A DNA stretch of 64,000 nucleotides from Actinomycetospora sp. NBRC 106378. Its GTDB lineage: Bacteria > Actinomycetota > Actinomycetes > Mycobacteriales > Pseudonocardiaceae. This document shows positions 11,865 to 58,924 of the stretch, piece after piece (within the stretch, counting starts at the first letter, position 1; each line of letters starts with the position of its first letter). The stretch spans positions 248,001-312,000 of the forward strand of contig NZ_BSTT01000006.1 of assembly GCF_030269685.1 (NCBI RefSeq). Direction: 5' to 3'. The notes beneath the pieces are model-generated. The model saw only the letters and a program-made list of their open reading frames with translations, was not told the origin of the DNA and made no database searches. The translations under genes were made by a program, and so were the position numbers.

Positions 11865-12797
11865 ATGATCGGGCCCGTGGACGGTCAGGTGGTCCCGCGC
11901 TTCGCGGGACCACCGACGTTCGCGCGGCTCCCCCGCCTCGACGAGGTCTCCCGGGCCGACGTCGCGATCGTCGGGCTGCCGTTCGACGCGGGGACGAGCT
12001 ACCGGCCGGGCGCCCGCTTCGGGCCGGCCCACATCCGGGCGTCGTCCCGGTTGCTGCGGCCCTACCACCCGGCCGTCGGCACCGCGCCGTTCGCCGCGCT
12101 GCAGGTCGCCGACGCCGGGGACCTGGCGCTCAACCCGTTCGACATCACCGAGGCCCTCGCCGCGGCCGAGACCGGGATCCGCGGGCTCGCCGAGGACGGC
12201 GCGACCGTCGTCGGCCTCGGCGGCGACCACACCCTCGCCCTGCCGGCGCTGCGCGCGCTGCACGCCCTCCACGGCCCGGTCGCGGTGCTGCACTTCGACG
12301 CCCACCTCGACACCTGGGACACCTACTTCGGCGCGCCGTACACCCACGGCACCCCGTTCCGGCGGGCGTCCGAGGAGGGGTTGATCGACCCGGAGCGGTC
12401 GATGCACGTGGGTATTCGCGGTCCGCTCTACTCCGTGGCGGACCTGGACGACGACGCCCGGCTCGGGTTCGCGGTCGTGCGCGCCGACGACTACGAGACC
12501 GACGGTGTGGCGCGCGCGGTGGAGCGGCTGCGCCGCCGGCTCGACGGCGGCCCGGTCTACGTGTCGGTGGACATCGACGTCCTCGACCCGGCCGCCGCGC
12601 CCGGGACGGGGACCCCGGAGGCCGGCGGGCTCACCAGCCGGGAGCTGCTCCACACCCTGCGGGGCCTGCAGGGCCTCGACATCGTGGGGTTCGACGTGGT
12701 GGAGGTCGCCCCGGCCTACGATCACGCCGAGATCACCGGCATCGCCGCCGCGCACGTGGTGTACGACCTGCTGGCGGTGCTCGCCGCCGGTCGGTGA
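11865..12797 (+). CDS. Ureohydrolase (agmatinase / guanidinobutyrase family)
   Basis: A 310-aa manganese ureohydrolase that releases urea from a guanidino compound. All metal-binding blocks are intact: [18 protein letters not shown] and [10 protein letters not shown], with the typical N-terminal [18 protein letters not shown]. The family includes agmatinase (SpeB) and guanidinobutyrase (GbuA), which sequence inspection cannot separate. The next two genes are a nitrilase-fold amidase and an L-amino-acid 2-monooxygenase. That context favours 4-guanidinobutanoate as substrate, the last step of the arginine 2-monooxygenase route to GABA. It starts 24 nt after glxA, and a palindromic repeat separates it from the next gene. 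Confidence 0.88.
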
Positions 12798-12838
12798 GCG
12801 TCAGCGGTGGCCCACCGCTGACGCTTGACGTCAGGAAC
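12798..12838. repeat. Family B palindromic element, copy B1
   Basis: A perfect 13-bp inverted repeat around a single C (12798-12824, core GTCAGCGGTGGC), followed by the family tail TTGACGTCAGGAAC. It begins on the base after the ureohydrolase stop and lies inside an apparent operon, so it could act as a partial terminator or mRNA-stabilising hairpin. Confidence 0.75.
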
Positions 12839-12858
12839 GGGACACGCTCGGAGGAGCC

Positions 12859-13596: not shown

Positions 13597-15266
13597 CGCC
13601 CGGCGGCCCGTCGATGCTGGTGCCGGACTTCCCGTTCGCCTACGACACCTACCTGGCCCACCCCGCGGGCCTGGGCCGGGTGCCGGACGCGGCGCTGGGC
13701 ACGGAGGTCGCCGTCATCGGGGCGGGGATGTCGGGGCTGGTGGCGGCCTACGAGCTGATGCGCCTCGGCCTCCGGCCGGTCGTGTACGAGGCCGGCGAGA
13801 TCGGCGGCCGGCTCCGGTCGCAGGCCTTCCCCGGCGCGCCGGACGCGGTGGCCGACCTGGGCGGGATGCGCTTTCCCGCCTCGGGTCGCGCGTTCGGCCA
13901 CTACCTGCGCGTCCTCGGCGTCCGGACCTCGCCGTTCCCGAACCCGCTCGCGCCGCAGACCCCGTCGACGGTGATCGAGCTGGCCGGACGCCGCCACTAC
14001 GCCGAGACCGCCGAGGACCTCCCGCCGGTCTTCGGCGAGGTGTCCCGGGCCTGGGCGACCGCGCTCGCCGACGGCGCCGAGCTCCCCGCCCTGCGCGCCG
14101 CGATCGCCGCCCGCTCCCCGACCGCGGTCAAGCAGATCTGGAACCGCCTGGTCCCCGCCCTCGACGAGGAGAGCTTCTCCGGCTTCCTCGCCCGGTCCCC
14201 GTCGTTCGCCGACTTCGGGCACCGCGAACTGTTCGGGCAGGTCGGCTTCGGCACCGGCGGCTGGGACACCGACTTCCCCAACTCCATGCTCGAGATCCTG
14301 CGGGTCGTGGCCACCGACGCGGACGACCAGCACGTCCGGATCCACGGCGGCGCCCAGTCCGTCCCGCTCGCGTTGTGGCGACGGGCGCCCTCGCAGCTGC
14401 ACCACTGGACGCCGGGCGCCTCGCTGGAGTCGTTGCACGGCGGATCACCCCGCCCCGCTGTCCGGGCGCTGCGCCGGCGCGCGGACGGGCAGATCGGCGT
14501 GCTCGACCGCTGGGGGACGGAGCGGGCCTACCCGGCGGCGATCTCGACGGTGCAGTCGTGGCTGCTCTCGGCGGGCATCGACACCGAGGAGTCGCTGTTC
14601 TCCCACGAGCTCTGGATGGCCCTCGAACGCTCGCACTACATGCAGAGCTCGAAGACGTTCGTGCTGGTGGACCGGCCCTTCTGGCGCGACCGCGACCCGT
14701 CGTCGGGACGGTTCGTCCTGTCCACCACGTTGACCGACCGGATGACCCGCGGGACCTACCTGCTCGACGGCGGAGGCGGTCTCGACGATCCCGACGCCGC
14801 CACCCGGCCGGCCGTGATGTGCCTGAGCTACACCTGGAACGACGACGCCCTGAAGTGGCTCGCGCTCCCGACCGACGAACGGGTGCGGCTCATGCTGCAC
14901 TCGCTGCGCCAGATCTACCCCGACCTCGACGTGGCCTCGCACATCCTGGGTGAGCCGATCACGATCTCGTGGGAGCGCGAACCCCACTTCATGGGCGCGT
15001 TCCGCGGCAACCTGCCCGGCCACTACCGCTACCAGCGGCGCCTGTTCACGCACTTCGTGCAGGACGCGTTCCCCCCGGAGCACCGCGGGATGTTCCTCGC
15101 CGGCGACGACATCTCGTTCACACCGGGGTGGGCCGAGGGCGCCGTGCACACCGCCCTGAACGCGGTGTGGGGCGTGGTGCACCAGCTCGGCGGGCACGCC
15201 GCGCCGGGCAACCCGGGCCCGGGCGACCGCTTCGCCGAGCTCGCCCCGCTCGATCTGGATCGCTGA
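13593..15266 (+). CDS. FAD-dependent L-amino acid 2-monooxygenase / amine oxidase family
   Basis: A 557-aa flavoprotein with the dinucleotide motif VAVIGAGMSGLVAAYELMR at about residues 37-55, the second motif VVYEAGEIGGRLRS, and the block DLGGMRFPASG, which resembles tryptophan/lysine/phenylalanine 2-monooxygenases. The C-terminus holds the FAD-binding FLAGDDISFTPGWAEGAVHTAL. These enzymes decarboxylate an L-amino acid oxidatively to the amide one carbon shorter. With a downstream amidase and a ureohydrolase in the same operon, L-arginine is the likeliest substrate. GTG 13593 overlaps the upstream stop; GTG 13590 and ATG 13614 are alternatives. Confidence 0.83.
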   Translation: MTPGGPSMLVPDFPFAYDTYLAHPAGLGRVPDAALGTEVAVIGAGMSGLVAAYELMRLGLRPVVYEAGEIGGRLRSQAFPGAPDAVADLGGMRFPASGRAFGHYLRVLGVRTSPFPNPLAPQTPSTVIELAGRRHYAETAEDLPPVFGEVSRAWATALADGAELPALRAAIAARSPTAVKQIWNRLVPALDEESFSGFLARSPSFADFGHRELFGQVGFGTGGWDTDFPNSMLEILRVVATDADDQHVRIHGGAQSVPLALWRRAPSQLHHWTPGASLESLHGGSPRPAVRALRRRADGQIGVLDRWGTERAYPAAISTVQSWLLSAGIDTEESLFSHELWMALERSHYMQSSKTFVLVDRPFWRDRDPSSGRFVLSTTLTDRMTRGTYLLDGGGGLDDPDAATRPAVMCLSYTWNDDALKWLALPTDERVRLMLHSLRQIYPDLDVASHILGEPITISWEREPHFMGAFRGNLPGHYRYQRRLFTHFVQDAFPPEHRGMFLAGDDISFTPGWAEGAVHTALNAVWGVVHQLGGHAAPGNPGPGDRFAELAPLDLDR

Positions 15267-15273
15267 GCCCCGT

Positions 15274-15330
15274 CCGGCAGGAAAGCGTCGTTGCTGTCAC
15301 CGGATGACAGCAACGACGCTCTCCTGCCGG
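15274..15330. terminator. Family A palindromic element, copy A2: bidirectional terminator-like hairpin
   Basis: Two 26-bp arms (15274-15299 and 15305-15330) match except at one position around a 5-nt loop. The core is GCAGGAAAGCGTCGTTGC. It fills the gap between the convergent monooxygenase and LysR genes, as expected of a bidirectional terminator, but has no U-run. Copies A3, A4 and A5 share the same arm. Confidence 0.8.
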
Positions 15331-15345
15331 AGGGGGTGGCCGGAT

Positions 15346-16970: not shown

Positions 16971-17023
16971 GGCAGAGAAGCGTCGTTGCTGTCGCGGGCC
17001 GACAGCAACGACGCTCTCCTGTC
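16971..17023. terminator. Family A palindromic element, copy A3: bidirectional terminator-like hairpin
   Basis: Arms at 16971-16994 and 17000-17023 share the GAAGCGTCGTTGCTGTCG core and pair with two or three mismatches around a 5-nt loop. It lies between the convergent SDR and leuD genes, the same arrangement as copy A2. Confidence 0.8.
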
Positions 17024-17031
17024 GGACGGAG

Positions 17032-19791: not shown

Positions 19792-19808
19792 CCGGTCACC
19801 GACGTCGG

Positions 19809-19850
19809 GCGTCAGCCGTGTGCCACCGCTGACGCTCGACGTCAGCACCC
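19809..19850. repeat. Family B palindromic element, copy B2
   Basis: A GTCAGCCGTG / CCACCGCTGAC inverted repeat (19809-19835) with the family tail CGACGTCAGCACC. It lies 18 nt after the IclR gene and about 55 nt before an SDR gene remnant. Confidence 0.65.
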
Positions 19851-19904
19851 CGCCACGCCCGGCATGAGGCCCCGGCCGCCGAGGAACCACGATCACGTCG
19901 AGCC

Positions 19905-22655: not shown

Positions 22656-22717
22656 GGCAGCCGTCACAGCCAGCGGCCGACTCCGGGGGACCTGGCCGAT
22701 CGGAGGGGCTCCTCCCC

Positions 22718-22760
22718 GTGGCAGGAAAGCGTCGTTGCTGTCGTCCAGTGGCAGGAGCGC
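22718..22760. repeat. Family A half-element, copy A4, at the break of the catalase-related gene
   Basis: One intact family A arm (GTGGCAGGAAAGCG... to 22742) is followed not by its complement but by GTCCA and a second short start of the same arm (GTGGCAGGAGC). It lies directly upstream of the truncated catalase-related gene. Confidence 0.75.
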
Positions 22761-22812
22761 CACATCGTCGGAACCCTGTCGTCCGGACCGGCGCGGTGCG
22801 AAGATCGGGCCC

Positions 22813-27014: not shown

Positions 27015-27024
27015 CCCCCTCCTG

Positions 27025-27079
27025 CTGAGCGAACGGCACTCTCGCAGCATCTAGGTGCGCGAGAGTGCCGTTCGCTCAG
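27025..27079. terminator. Perfect inverted repeat after ileS
   Basis: Two perfectly complementary 21-nt arms (27025-27045, 27059-27079) with a 13-nt loop. The arm contains GCGAACGGCACTCTCGC. It starts 11 nt after the ileS stop and is a likely intrinsic-type terminator without a U-run. Confidence 0.8.
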
Positions 27080-27137
27080 ATCGAGGACGCTCCCATAGCG
27101 GCCACTCGGTGACCGGTACGGCTGCGACGCTCCGACC

Positions 27138-27545: not shown

Positions 27546-27677
27546 GTCCGACGATGGCGCGCTGCTCCCACTCGATGCGTGCAGCGGGACATCGTCGGCC
27601 GGCCGCAGACCACCGGTCGTCCTGAATCAGGACCAGGACATTGCGGAAGCGGAGTCCCATATGTCACGGTGGGTCCC

Positions 27678-31963: not shown

Positions 31964-32127
31964 CGGGTCCGCTCCGGGACCGAGAAGTAGGTGATCGACC
32001 TGCCGTCGGGAAGGCGCTCCGCCTCGACGACGAGCCCGGGCAGCGCGCCCTCGTCGGTGTCAGCGGTGGCACACGGCTGACCCCCAGCGTCAGCGGTGGG
32101 CCACCGCTGATCGTCCTCGCCCGTCAT
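31960..32127 (-). CDS. Small ORF coupled to galT (possible detached GalT N-terminus)
   Basis: An ORF of about 55 codons from ATG 32127 to a TGA that overlaps the galT GTG. Its last 26 residues (VVEAERLPDGRSITYFSVPE) look like the N-terminal tail RLADGRELIYFD of typical actinobacterial GalT. Its first half is simply the translation of two family B repeats (32059-32110). Either a short coupled peptide is made or the galT 5' end was broken by repeat insertion plus a frame change. The start is uncertain. Confidence 0.45.
32059..32110. repeat. Family B palindromic elements, copies B3 and B4 in tandem
   Basis: Two adjacent palindromes, GTCAGCGGTGGCACACGG-type (32059-32081) and GCGTCAGCGGTGGGCC-type (32087-32110), without the GACGTCAG tail. 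They lie in the galT leader region. Confidence 0.65.
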
Positions 32128-39344: not shown

Positions 39345-39382
39345 CGGACCAGTCTCCGGGCGACCCCGGGACGCGCGCGAGC

Positions 39383-39414
39383 GATATCCCGGGGAACTCT
39401 GGGGGATATCCCCC
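39383..39414. promoter_or_regulatory. Candidate operator: GATATCCC inverted repeat and GGGGGATATCCCCC
   Basis: In the divergent gap between the DUF2087 and AIM24 genes, GATATCCC (39383-39390) is inverted as GGGATATC (39403-39410) with a 12-nt spacer. The second half is itself a 14-bp perfect palindrome (39401-39414). AT-containing sites like this stand out in such GC-rich DNA. Confidence 0.5.
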
Positions 39415-39497
39415 TCGTTGACCGTCTGTGTCCGCCGCGAGGATGAACTCGCCCGGACCACTGGGCAGCAATCACCTCGAGTGACCGGGAGACGGCC

Positions 39498-47333: not shown

Positions 47334-48902
47334 TCAGCCGAACGGGATCATTCGGGTGGTCCGGGCCTGCAGCGTGCTCCCGATCGGGGCCAGGACGTCC
47401 TCCGGGACCGCCCGGTCGACGCGCAGGAGCATGAGCGACGAGCCCCGGTCCCGCGTCTGCGAGAGCTGCGCGGCCTCGATGTTCACCCCCGATTCGCCCA
47501 ACCGGGTGCCCACCAGGCCCATCGCCCCGGGCCGGTCGGTGTACTCGAAGAGCAGCACGTGGCCCTCGGCGCGCAGGTCGAACGACCGCCCGTTGATCTC
47601 GACCAACTTCTCGACCTGGTCGGTGCCGGTGAGCGCGCCGGACACGGTGGTGCCGTCGGCGCGCAGCGTGACGAGGCTGCGGTGGTTCGGGCTCTCGCTG
47701 GCGGTCTCGACGCTCACCCGGACACCCCGCTCGGCCGCCAGGGCCGGGGCGTTGACGAACGTGACCGGCTCGTCGACGACCTCGCCGAACACGCCGCGCA
47801 GCGCGGCCAGCTCCAGGACCCCGACGTCCTCGTGCGCGAGCTCGCCGCGCACCTCGACGACGATCGACTCCGGCTGCCCCACGAGGGTCGACAGCAGCGT
47901 GCCCAGCTTCTGCGTGACGCCGAGCCACGGCCGGACCTCCTCGCCGACCGCCCCGCCCTGCACGTTGACCGCGTCGGGCACGAAGTCGCCGCGCAGCGCC
48001 CGGAGCACGGAGTGGGCGACGTCGGTGCCCGCGCGGTCCTGCGCCTCGGCGGTCGACGCACCGAGGTGCGGGGTCGCCGTGACCTGCTCGAGCTCGAACA
48101 GCGGACTGTGGGTGGTCGGCTCGGTGACGTAGACGTCCACGCCGGCGCCGGCCACGTGCCCGGAGCGGATCGCCTCGGCCAGCGCGTCCTCGTCGACGAG
48201 CCCGCCGCGGGCGGCGTTGACGACGATGACGCCGGGCTTCGTCCGCGCCAGCGCCTCCTTCCCGATCAGCCCCTGCGTCTCGGGGGTCTTCGGCAGGTGG
48301 ATCGTCATCATGTCGGCGCGGGTCAGCAGCTCGTCCAGCTCCACGAGTTCGATCCCGAGCTGGGCGGCACGGCTGGCCGGCAGGTACGGGTCGTAGGCGA
48401 TCACGTGGGTGTCGAAGGCCTTGATGCGGCTCGCGAACAGCTGGCCGATCTTCCCGAGCCCGATCACCCCGACCGTCTTGCCCTGGATCTCGACGCCCGT
48501 GTAGCGGCTGCGGGCCCACTCGCCGCGGCGCAGGGCGGCGTCGGCGGCGGGGATGTGCCGGGCGGTCGCGAGCAGCAGGGCGAGGGCGTGCTCCGCGGCC
48601 GAGACGATGTTGGAGACCGGGGCGTTCACGACCATCACGCCGGCCGCCGTCGCCGCCGGCACGTCGACGTTGTCGAGCCCGACCCCGGCGCGCCCGACCA
48701 CGGTCAGCCGCCGCTGCGCCGCGAACACCTCCGCGTCGACCTGCGTGGCGCTGCGCACGAGCAGGGCGTCCGCGTCGGCGACCGCCGCGAGCAGGGCCGC
48801 CCGGTCGGTCCCGTCGACCAGCCGGACCTCCACCTCGTCGCCGAACACCTCCAGCGCCGACGGGGCGAGCTTCTCGGCCATCAGGACGACGGGCTTCGAC
48901 AT
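47334..48902 (-). CDS. serA: D-3-phosphoglycerate dehydrogenase
   Basis: The first enzyme of serine synthesis. The 522-aa protein is the long actinobacterial type. It has a substrate domain, an NAD-binding domain with [15 protein letters not shown], catalytic Arg in [15 protein letters not shown] and His in [17 protein letters not shown]. The allosteric substrate-binding domain and a C-terminal ACT domain ([20 protein letters not shown]) follow. ACT-mediated serine inhibition is expected. ATG 48902 begins [20 protein letters not shown]. The 143-nt gap to leuB shows no clear hairpin. Confidence 0.96.
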
Positions 48903-49005
48903 GCTTCTCCCCCGGGTCGGCGGCGGTGCTGACTCCGCGCACATCGTGCCGTACGCCACACCCTGGGTCGATAGACCTCACTCCCGGCTCACCCGGCCCC
49001 GCTTC

Positions 49006-49130
49006 GTCAGCAATGGCACAGCACTGACACCTGACGTCAGGACGGCGCCACTCGCACATCACCGTTCCGCGCTCCGCGGATCAGCAATGGCACAGCGCTG
49101 ACACCTGACGTCAGAACGGCGCCACTCGCA
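49006..49130 (+). repeat. Family B double unit, left (two 51-bp copies, B5 and B6)
   Basis: Two direct 51-bp copies at 49006-49056 and 49080-49130, separated by 23 nt (period 74). Each has the palindrome GTCAGCAATGGCACAGC-type followed by GACACCTGACGTCAG and ends GGCGCCACTCGCA. The right unit (50268-50392) is the same structure in inverted orientation with the same 74-nt period. Confidence 0.92.
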
Positions 49131-49145
49131 GGTCTCGCGCAGGCC

Positions 49146-50126
49146 TCATCCGGTGCGCGGGAGATCCGATTGCCACCGGACGAGCGGGGTCGGCAGCTCT
49201 TCCGCGGTCCGGATCGACTGCAGGACGTCCTCGAGCATGGCCGCCGAGTCGTTCATGATCCGGGTCGGGCGGACGCCGTACACATGGAGCCCCGCCGACC
49301 GGTAGGCACGGTGCTGCCGCTCCGTCTCGACCACTTGCTCGGTCGTCATGAAGTGATGCTCGGTGGAGTCGTTCTGCAGGACGAGACCGATCCTCGGCAG
49401 GTAGGCGTCGGCGATCCTGAGGAAGTGGTCACCCTGGTACAGGCGGACATTGAAGAGGACCTCGTGCGCCGCCAGCTCGGGGTGGGCGAACCACCAACGG
49501 TGGAACTCGAACTCGCCGGCCGATCGCACGCCGGCCGACACGGCCCGCAGTACCTTCCGCGGCGTCGCCGTCCCCCGTCGGTTGCCCTCCTCCAACTCGA
49601 CGGAGAGGTGCTCTGGCAAGGTCATCCGTCGTTGGACGGGTTCGGTGAGGACAGCGGCGATGTCGCTCTCCCCGCGCATCCGGCGAGCGGCATCGACGAC
49701 TGCTCGCTCGAGTCGCACGACCGGCAGTCCGTCCCGGGTCAGCGGAACCAAGGGGCGGGTCGTCCGTTCGATGCGCAGCCAAGGAAGTCCCTGCACGCGG
49801 AGCGCAGCCGGGATGAGGAGGTGGACCGACGTCGGCAGCTCGCCGCGTCGTAGACCGTGAGCGCGCGCCGCGTCGAGACCGGTGACGACGGCAAGATCGC
49901 CCGCGTAGACGAGTGCAGCACGGAGGAGCTGGCGCCGGGTCGGGGTGCCCGTGCTGAGCCGGATCGTCGCCGGTGCGGCCAATGTCCACGGGCCACCGTC
50001 TCGACACCGGCGATAGATGGTGCCCTCGGGCATCCCCATCTCCATGAGAACGCGCGCATGGATCGTGTCGTCCTCCGCCGCCTCGTGGATCGCCGACATG
50101 TCGTCCGCCCACCGACCTCGTTTCAT
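49146..50126 (-). CDS. AbiEi-like N-terminus / DUF559 (Vsr-like) endonuclease-fold protein
   Basis: A 326-aa protein in two parts. The N-terminal part has a winged-helix-like segment (MGMPEGTIYRRCRDGGPWTLAAPA) and VVTGLDAARAHGL, the pattern of AbiEi-type antitoxin domains. The C-terminal part resembles DUF559/Vsr-like PD-(D/E)XK folds: FRIADAYLP-type Asp, then LVLQNDSTEHH where relatives usually have an E-V-D, so the catalytic Glu appears replaced by Gln. Such genes are numerous in actinobacteria and their role is unknown. It alone occupies the interval between inverted family B double units, between serA and ilvC. ATG 50099 is an alternative start. Base composition looks slightly less GC-rich than its neighbours. 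Confidence 0.7.
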   Translation of the reverse strand: MKRGRWADDMSAIHEAAEDDTIHARVLMEMGMPEGTIYRRCRDGGPWTLAAPATIRLSTGTPTRRQLLRAALVYAGDLAVVTGLDAARAHGLRRGELPTSVHLLIPAALRVQGLPWLRIERTTRPLVPLTRDGLPVVRLERAVVDAARRMRGESDIAAVLTEPVQRRMTLPEHLSVELEEGNRRGTATPRKVLRAVSAGVRSAGEFEFHRWWFAHPELAAHEVLFNVRLYQGDHFLRIADAYLPRIGLVLQNDSTEHHFMTTEQVVETERQHRAYRSAGLHVYGVRPTRIMNDSAAMLEDVLQSIRTAEELPTPLVRWQSDLPRTG

Positions 50127-50219
50127 GCCCGGAGCGTGAGGCGGTCGGCCGGACCGTGGTGAAACGAGCCGTCGGCCTGTGGACAGGCAGGGGCCGTACT
50201 GCCATTGGGGATGAACGAC

Positions 50220-50254
50220 GACGGCGGACGTACCAATCAGGTACGTCCGCCGTC
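50220..50254. terminator. Perfect hairpin upstream of the nuclease-like gene
   Basis: Perfect 15-bp arms (GACGGCGGACGTACC and its complement) with a 5-nt loop. The arm is closely similar to that of the ilvC terminator at 50419-50452 (GACGGCGGGCGCAC). It lies between the gene start and the right double unit. The rest of the 341-nt gap from 50127 to 50467 holds only repeats and the ilvC terminator. Confidence 0.65.
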
Positions 50255-50267
50255 ATGTGCTCGTTGG

Positions 50268-50392
50268 TGCGAGTGGCGCCGTTCTGACGTCAGGTGTCAG
50301 CGATGTGCCAGCGCTGACGGCCGCCGTCGGGCGCCCGCTCGTGCGAGTGGCGCCGTTCTGACGTCAGGTGTCAGTCATGTGCCAGTACTGAC
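50268..50392 (-). repeat. Family B double unit, right (two 51-bp copies, B7 and B8, inverted)
   Basis: Two 51-bp copies at 50268-50318 and 50342-50392, period 74, spacer 23 nt. They are in reverse orientation relative to the left unit and share GGCGCCGTTCTGACGTCAGG. The variable positions fall mainly in the palindrome arms, where changes are partly compensatory (CAATGGCACAGC versus GCTGGCACATCG), which suggests selection on pairing. Confidence 0.92.
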
Positions 50393-50418
50393 GTCAGGGC
50401 GGCGGACCCACGACGAAC

Positions 50419-50452
50419 GACGGCGGGCGCACCGAGGAGTGCGCCCGCCGTC
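50419..50452 (-). terminator. Terminator of ilvC
   Basis: A perfect 14-bp inverted repeat GACGGCGGGCGCAC with its complement, 6-nt loop, ending 16 nt beyond the ilvC stop on the minus strand. Confidence 0.75.
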
Positions 50453-50467
50453 AGGAACCGCAGCAGA

Positions 50468-51514
<1,047 letters not shown>

Positions 51515-58732: not shown

Positions 58733-58815
58733 ACGGGAGTTCCTTCCGATGCGCGAAGGCAGGTCGTCCTGCCGTCGAGCCTGCCGCCCGGATTTCGACA
58801 GGCACCGGCTTCTCG

Positions 58816-58840
58816 GTGGCAGGAAAGCGTCGTTGCTGTC
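58816..58840. repeat. Family A half-element, copy A5
   Basis: One family A arm identical to copy A4 over 25 nt (GTGGCAGGAAAGCG... to 58840), followed by ACTGGAC and degenerate sequence instead of the complementary arm. It lies between the VOC remnant and the 13E12-type gene. Confidence 0.78.
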
Positions 58841-58924
58841 ACTGGACGCCAGGTTCGCCGCATTCTCGCTGGTGGCGGCGCTGGGATGGCCGTGACTGTC
58901 GGGGGTCGCTGCTAGCTTGCGAAC

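What the first reader, a model, noticed from the sequence alone, without database searches (positions are those of the whole stretch)
49006..50392. Single nuclease-like gene between inverted, double 51-bp palindromic repeats at fixed 74-bp period
Four near-identical 51-bp repeats flank one AbiEi/DUF559-like gene. Two are direct on the left (49006, 49080) and two are inverted on the right (50268, 50342). Both pairs have exactly the same 74-bp period, and both end 15-140 bp from the gene. The interval splits the serA-ilvC order that is contiguous in mycobacteria. The layout is that of a mobile cassette with compound ends, or of a gene whose product acts on these repeats (binding, cutting or moving them). 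The nuclease-like motif shows an apparent Glu to Gln change, so a DNA-binding rather than cutting role is possible. I know of no described system with this architecture.
Basis: partly seen in the sequence, partly recalled or inferred. Interest (0 to 1): 0.78.

Follow-up and report, generated by a model that had tools for sequence, protein, structure and literature searches.

The report
Nuclease gene with matching scattered hairpins
In a group of soil actinobacteria, a family of nuclease-like genes is mostly found bracketed by mirror-image copies of a short hairpin sequence, and the same hairpin is scattered through that organism's genome, which looks like a new kind of partnership between an enzyme and the repeats it acts on.

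Summary
The repeats are real and as described: two direct ~52-bp units left (49005-49057, 49080-49131), two inverted units right (50267-50318, 50341-50393), 74-bp period on both sides. They are one case of a pattern in the genus (Actinomycetospora by its named relatives). 51 of 61 family genes at seven sites are flanked by inverted repeats, against 0 of 318 control genes. Repeat sequence differs between gene lineages, yet the same repeat is scattered in the genome carrying that gene: 250 half-sites of the type flanking paralogue L043 in the window's genome, 85-174 in three relatives, 16 in a fourth, 0-1 in the other 13; reversed control 0. In nine outside genera, picked for having such flanks, every listed match fell in the genome's own segment of a joined query. 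RAYT-type transposase: 0 of 18 genomes. The protein is AbiEi-like plus a Vsr/EDxHD-like nuclease fold. The gene stays at fixed sites, so it is not a freely moving cassette. Best reading: a REPtron-like pair with an unrelated enzyme that binds paired hairpins and drives their spread or homogenisation. Association shown; catalysis inferred.

The parts
49005..49057 (+). outer left repeat unit, downstream of the gene
49080..49131 (+). inner left repeat unit, 74 bp from the outer one
49146..50126 (-). 326-aa gene: AbiEi-like part plus Vsr/EDxHD-like C-terminal nuclease fold (E205, D240, Q251, D253, H258)
   Evidence: this member itself has no Pfam match at E<=1
50220..50254 (.). 15-bp-stem hairpin between gene start and right repeats, near-copy of the ilvC terminator-like hairpin
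   Evidence: (I13, D8)
50267..50318 (-). inner right repeat unit, upstream of the gene
50341..50393 (-). outer right repeat unit, 74 bp from the inner one
50419..50452 (.). 14-bp-stem terminator-like hairpin after ilvC; a similar hairpin is in the empty site of relative G027
   Evidence: (I17)
50468..51472 (-). ilvC (neighbour; marks the site in relatives)
47337..48902 (-). serA (neighbour; marks the site in relatives)
15276..15333 (.). dispersed hairpin of the type flanking paralogue L043; no hairpin there in G023 and G038, the two relatives that could be aligned
16977..17031 (.). dispersed L043-type hairpin, also at the same place in G026, G030, G023
22716..22770 (.). dispersed L043-type unit (94% to the gene flank)
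58812..58863 (.). dispersed L043-type unit
27017..27080 (.). dispersed hairpin nearest to the L136 type; no hairpin there in the three alignable relatives
27549..27584 (.). dispersed copy nearest to the L077 type (89%, 36 bases)
12785..12850 (.). dispersed copy nearest to the flanks of this window's own gene (80%)
19799..19875 (.). dispersed copy nearest to the L076 type (same orthologue group)
32056..32110 (.). dispersed copy; the same place holds a different repeat type in G038 and G031

Best explanation
A two-part system: a gene for an AbiEi-like DNA-binding protein with a Vsr/EDxHD-like nuclease fold, one copy per site and mostly vertically inherited, and a cognate family of ~50-nt REP-like hairpins. 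The gene is usually bracketed by hairpins in inverted orientation (often two units per side at set spacing), and the same hairpin is scattered in tens to hundreds of copies, often just after stop codons. SHOWN: the association, its lineage specificity, dispersal, presence/absence of single copies between relatives, site-stability of the gene, absence of RAYTs. INFERRED: the protein binds pairs of units on one face of the DNA, which also lets it control its own promoter; the nuclease domain nicks or cuts at units, and repair or copying from another unit spreads the hairpin and homogenises copies, including those beside the gene. It works like a REPtron (RAYT plus REPs) or a homing-endonuclease drive, but is not shown to be a member of either.
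For: Inverted repeats (score >=45) at 51 of 61 family genes, median 92, vs 0 of 318 controls, maximum 40; earlier run. Lineage-specific repeat dispersed in the same genomes: (reversed-pattern control 0 in all 18). In 864 kb of the own genome 73 clusters vs 2 with reversed queries; 4 are the genes' own flanks; of the other 69, 36 best match one of four own-genome query loci out of 46. Nine outside genera: each hit in its own segment in every listed row, own genome 0. Unit spacing in flanks clusters at 74-76 and 83-86 bp (34 of 38 values). Solo hairpins against clean empty sites. Same site with different subtypes, in part matching the genome's own gene flank. Pairing kept across subtypes. Fold and motif. 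No RAYT.
Against: No activity is shown. The usual acidic residue at 251 is Q or P in 11 of 12 rows of the window's site and the L043 site, so cutting may be weak or lost there, although L043 has the most copies. Two of six orthologues at this site (G023, G026) lack a detected two-sided repeat and 10 of 61 genes miss the inverted cut-off; 6 of the 52 passing in either orientation score as well or better in direct orientation. G034 and G035 carry 31 and 23 L139-type half-sites and G038 16 L043-type ones without a fetched gene of that lineage. In its own genome the window gene's repeat is rare: four units at the gene plus four weak places at E<=0.01. The window's left outer unit folds no better than shuffles (z -0.18). 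No clear target-site duplication. Related genomes are not independent samples.
Confidence: 0.6

Rival explanations
1. Binding without mobilisation: the protein is an AbiEi-type regulator; flanking pairs are autoregulatory operators, and dispersed hairpins are sites for regulation, insulation or chromosome organisation. The nuclease fold is only a binding scaffold.
For: AbiEi hits; AbiEi and its relative Rv2827c autoregulate through promoter inverted repeats, Rv2827c through two sets (PMC7319586 abstract); set spacing of units; residue 251 replaced in the window's clade.
Against: Does not explain downstream inverted copies, hundreds of genome-specific copies, presence/absence of single copies or subtype switching at one site; E205, D240, H258 the same in 59 of 59 rows; dispersed copies sit nearer 3' ends (median 15 bp, 50 of 83 within 30) than 5' ends (median 257, 5 of 39 within 30).
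Confidence: 0.2
2. Autonomous insertion sequence with compound terminal repeats; dispersed hairpins are its deletion derivatives (MITEs).
For: Gene between inverted ends; an internally deleted gene copy keeps its ends in G026 (L232); sites without the gene in 10 genomes.
Against: One copy per site, seven sites for 61 genes, near-minimal changes on the tree; repeats change while the gene stays; in G031 and G030 the terminator-like hairpin lies between the repeats and the gene, so the repeats are not the gene's insertion borders; no clear target-site duplication.
Confidence: 0.1
3. RNA-level system: hairpins are 3'-UTR or terminator structures and the Vsr-like protein binds or processes them in RNA.
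For: Median distance to a 3' end 15 bp; 9 of 12 scorable asymmetric copies, two of the 12 being the flanks of L043 itself, have the same orientation relative to the upstream gene; Foldseek also lists mitoribosomal proteins; a Vsr-like regulator of an mRNA is in print (PMC11879112, listing only).
Against: Inverted, not same-strand, copies around the gene; set spacing of units; 3 of 12 opposite orientation, small sample; no Rfam match.
Confidence: 0.08
4. Ordinary intergenic repeats that lie beside these genes by chance.
For: The repeat types are common intergenic elements in these genomes.
Against: 51 of 61 vs 0 of 318; cognate specificity in nine further genera.
Confidence: 0.02

Closest known systems
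REPtrons: RAYT (TnpA_REP, Y1/HUH) transposase with REP/BIME/REPIN repeats
   Same: Gene flanked by hairpin repeats in inverted orientation; same repeats dispersed, near 3' ends of ORFs (PMC2817692 and PMC3733652 passages). Single-copy gene and gene-specific repeat type: recalled.
   Different: Enzyme is not Y1/HUH: PF01797 in 0 of 18 genomes; fold is AbiEi-like plus Vsr/EDxHD-like. Units ~50 nt, often in direct pairs at set spacing; several gene-repeat pairs per genome.
AbiEi antitoxins (type IV toxin-antitoxin AbiE), incl. Rv2827c
   Same: AbiEi-like region; inverted repeats near the gene.
   Different: Extra nuclease-fold C-terminus; in the window no toxin gene beside it (neighbours serA, ilvC); repeats on both sides and genome-wide.
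EDxHD/Vsr-like homing endonucleases (I-Bth0305I) and MTES_1575/DUF559 nucleases
   Same: C-terminal fold (3r3p prob 1.00, 3hrl prob 0.99) and E-D-H residues (recalled mapping); I-Bth0305I is said to dimerise on a target of nearly 60 bp (PMC3943268 passage), about one unit here.
   Different: Gene is not inserted in its target; the presumed target is a multicopy hairpin family; gene mostly vertically inherited.

Membership tests
REPtron / RAYT | Y1 (HUH) tyrosine transposase, PF01797 | tested here: not met
   0 of 18 genus genomes; control genomes positive in 5 of 14
REPtron / RAYT | gene flanked by cognate repeats in inverted orientation | tested here: met
   51 of 61 genes vs 0 of 318 controls
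REPtron / RAYT | same repeats dispersed, mainly intergenic, in the same genome | tested here: met
   57 of 69 clusters away from the genes are less than half coding by a GC3 gene rule
REPtron / RAYT | transposase-mediated cleavage of the repeat | not testable with these tools
   needs biochemistry
AbiE type IV toxin-antitoxin (AbiEi) | AbiEi domains | tested here: met
   PADLOC AbiEi model PDLC02249 in 31 of 31 members; Foldseek 6y8q E 4.9e-5; Pfam AbiEi_4 in 9 of 31 at E<=0.1, none for the window's own protein
AbiE type IV toxin-antitoxin (AbiEi) | adjacent AbiEii nucleotidyltransferase toxin gene | tested here: not met
   neighbours in the window are serA and ilvC; other sites not examined for it
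PD-(D/E)XK / MTES_1575 / EDxHD nuclease | fold and acidic/His residues | tested here: inconclusive
   fold matched, E205/D240/H258 in 59 of 59 rows, E251 lost in the window's clade; Pfam MTES_1575 below cut-off; mapping of catalytic residues is recalled
Insertion sequence with terminal inverted repeats | multiple mobile copies of gene plus ends, with target-site duplications | tested here: not met
   stable at seven sites; no clear duplications at empty sites

The most novel reading that the evidence does not exclude
A separate, non-HUH class of REP systems, widespread in Actinobacteria: AbiEi-Vsr nucleases that recognise their own hairpin in phased pairs, cut it, and spread and homogenise it by break repair, so that enzyme and several hundred hairpins evolve together; several mutually blind pairs live in one genome, and the hairpins are reused by the host as gene ends.
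Probability: 0.42. Interest if true: 0.92.

Novelty: new variant of a known kind. Interest (0 to 1): 0.85.

Why it matters
REP-like repeats fill many bacterial genomes, and the one dedicated enzyme for them that I know of is the RAYT transposase; [quoted passage not shown] Here is a gene family with an unrelated fold that has much of the RAYT signature. It turns 'what spreads REPs where there is no RAYT' into a direct test, offers a role for a large group of AbiEi/MTES_1575-like genes of actinobacteria (relatives in 137 of 246 genomes of the class), and gives ready-made sets of protein-DNA pairs that appear to have changed together.

Tried and rejected
Rejected: recent cassette insertion at serA-ilvC (repeats are not the gene's borders; gene stable). 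RAYT as mobiliser. Known RNA family in 48900-50500 (none at E<=0.1). Phage family (PHROGs 0 of 31). Chance neighbourhood. RNAalifold on the mixed alignment gave no structure; stems drawn by hand were scored instead, so those counts lean towards them: 85, 85 and 66% of cells paired against 24-48% when slid by 1-3 columns and shuffled maxima of 79, 81 and 57%; two-sided changes exceed every shuffle for the first and outer stems (47 vs 29, 73 vs 52) but not for the second (31 vs 34), and one slide of the outer stem reaches 59. The 10.5-bp phasing is suggestive only: 38 of 126 scanned flanks had a period, R 0.80 at 10.5 but the best scanned period was 9.6; loci are related; 5 of 200 control flanks had one, two of them 75. 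One search picked wrong reading frames and its proteins were discarded. Searches place gene ends by locus length, which misplaces them near contig ends (L197's direct score of 888 is probably such an artefact; it is 24). The ten inverted misses are L077 (44, direct 46), L078, L079, L101, L045, L084, L131, L148, L150, L228; L045 and the fragment L101 score 60/74 and 120 with other boundaries but are counted as misses. L102, L135, L136, L144, L224 and L077 score higher direct than inverted. Gene calls are a GC3 rule, not an annotation. L046/L047 are left out of the 61. Two of the six sequences folded (third and sixth) are not letter-for-letter copies of any locus held and are not used as evidence. 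Literature: nine searches of an open-access library listed no paper joining such nucleases to dispersed palindromes; the lists are cut and most subscription papers and preprints are not held.

Full report
OBSERVATION. The four repeats, their coordinates, orientation and the shared 74-bp period are confirmed, as is the 326-aa gene between them. In the own genome a pattern with up to 3 mismatches finds only these four units; a looser search adds weak copies (six matches at E<=0.01, two of them the pairs at the gene).

GENUS-WIDE CONTEXT. Of 390 family-level genomes, 5 hold close copies, all of one genus, named Actinomycetospora through relatives. Matches at E<=0.01 occur in 9 of 18 genus genomes, e.g. 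27 in G031, 20 in G027, 13 in G030, 11 in G023. The gene lies between serA and ilvC in six genomes; ten have serA and ilvC adjacent without it; two gave no such locus. In the six, the flanking repeats differ: G000, G031 and G030 have double units on both sides, G038 one and two units of another sequence, G026 a tandem set detected on the serA side only, G023 nothing detected. Nine of the ten empty sites carry a solo hairpin matching the flank of another family gene in the genus (E 3.5e-10 or better); the tenth, G027, has only a 25-base match at E 4e-4.

THE GENERAL PATTERN. Family members were found in 18 of 18 genomes. Comparing 350-bp upstream and downstream flanks, 51 of 61 genes at seven sites score 45 or more in inverted orientation (median 92), against 0 of 318 control genes of 600-1500 nt from 864 kb of the own genome (maximum 40; one control reached 45 in direct orientation). 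In either orientation it is 52 of 61; 46 of these are more alike inverted than direct, the rest being close to palindromic. An earlier run with 101 control ORFs from five relatives and the window had a maximum of 35 inverted and 39 direct. The repeats mostly sit about 50-300 bp upstream and 0-230 bp downstream. 38 of 126 scanned flanks gave an internal period: 74-76 (17), 83-86 (17), 68 (2), 65 and 95; 5 of 200 control flanks gave one.

COGNATE DISPERSED COPIES. Half-sites of the L043-type repeat with up to 3 mismatches: G000 250, G026 174, G030 147, G023 85, G038 16, G027 and G031 1 each, 0 in the other 11; reversed pattern 0 in all 18. A full palindrome counts twice. L139-type: 79, 75, 70, 59, 46 and 28 in the six genomes whose gene at that site belongs to the L139 clade (G036, G028, G025, G022, G033, G037; tree), 31 and 23 in G034 and G035, 2-3 in G024, G029, G032, and 0 in seven; reversed pattern 0. 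In 864 kb of the own genome, flank repeats of 46 family genes give 73 clusters, reversed queries 2. Four clusters are the flanks of the two genes lying there; of the other 69, 36 best match one of the four own-genome query loci and 57 are less than half coding. Of 61 intergenic clusters 27 lie between convergent genes, against 77 of 381 background gaps; 50 of 83 distances to a 3' end but 5 of 39 to a 5' end are at most 30 bp. Of 34 L043/L094-type copies there, 22 are asymmetric, 10 are full palindromes with a constant 30-base offset and 2 were unclassified.

OUTSIDE THE GENUS. A profile search found relatives in 137 of 246 genomes of the class at E<=1e-8. Of the 30 loci returned (one the own genome's), 17 had inverted flank scores of 45 or more and 13 did not. 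Nine of the 17, from nine genera, were picked and their flank repeats joined into one query. Every listed match in these nine genomes lies wholly or mostly in that genome's own segment, each genome has listed places away from its gene, and the own genome had 0 matches. The list is cut; the match counts (6 to 61) include both strands of palindromes, and only 40 candidates were scored in the richer genomes.

MOVEMENT AND CONCERTED CHANGE. Aligning the window with five relatives shows solo hairpins against clean empty sites, e.g. 15266-15343 against G023 directly after a stop codon, and a G030 hairpin with none detected at that place in the five others. No clear target-site duplication was seen. 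At three shared sites the same place carries different subtypes or variants in different genomes, in part matching the genome's own gene flank, such as the L100 type in G038 and the L094 and L093 types in G030 and G031; in other cases (G031 at the first site) the best match is another genome's. This fits homogenisation by gene conversion, or repeated insertion at favoured sites.

THE GENE. The tree has 61 rows (59 at the seven sites plus two distant ones; two short fragments left out). The seven sites need 6 changes, the least possible. The site of L043 holds three gene lineages in different genomes (L043-type, L080, L100) and the site of L044 two, so replacement at a site also occurs. G026 has a copy with an internal deletion between its repeats (L232). 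AlphaFold gave pLDDT 91.6. Foldseek best hits are AbiEi 6y8q and Rv2827c 1zel; the homing endonuclease I-Bth0305I and a Vsr-like protein follow at weaker E-values (0.038, 0.075) with probability 1.00 and 0.99, beside mitoribosomal proteins. E205, D240, S254 and H258 are the same in 59 of 59 rows; residue 251 is E in 46 of 47 rows of the five other sites and Q or P in 11 of 12 rows of the two nearest. RAYT is absent.

THE UNIT. Across 49 distinct units of four sites, three hand-drawn stems are better paired than slid or shuffled versions: two alternative hairpins sharing one arm, and an outer stem; the second hairpin's two-sided changes do not exceed the shuffles. Of the four letter-exact units folded as DNA, three are more stable than shuffles (z -2.9 to -3.9) and the window's own is not (z -0.18).

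MECHANISM. Shown: association, specificity, dispersal, presence/absence, site-stable gene, no RAYT. Inferred: paired binding on one DNA face; autoregulation through upstream units, as described for AbiEi-type proteins (PMC7319586, abstract and outline seen); cutting and repair-driven spread. [quoted passage not shown] The RepRanger survey PMC12306157 has no word beginning with transposase, RAYT or nuclease in its main text (one passage seen).

VERDICT. The finding is real and larger than reported. It works like a REPtron but fails its defining enzyme test, so I rate it a new variant of a known kind, with a categorically new class as the bold reading.

Noticed in passing
regions of G023, G026, G030 aligned to window ~28400 and ~40240 (L264-L275): Another ~60-70-bp hairpin family (core like GTGAGTACTTTTCCGTG) lies at or just after TAG in some relatives and is absent in others; flanks of two distant family genes (L241, L243) look similar by eye.
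   Followed up: partly
L232 (G026:C1:3553109-3556552): A family gene with an internal deletion (only its two ends match) between inverted repeats, in a genome with 174 half-sites of that repeat.
   Followed up: partly
L043, L080, L100 loci: One genomic site is occupied by three different gene lineages in different genomes, as if alleles were replaced in place.
   Followed up: partly
window 50220-50254 and 50419-50452: Two similar terminator-like hairpins bracket the right repeat pair; in G031 and G030 one lies on the gene side of the repeats, in G038 one on the ilvC side (read by eye).
   Followed up: partly
G023 region, joined coordinate 39363-39477 (L272-L273): A tandem array is present in G023 and absent in G000 and G030.
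   Followed up: no
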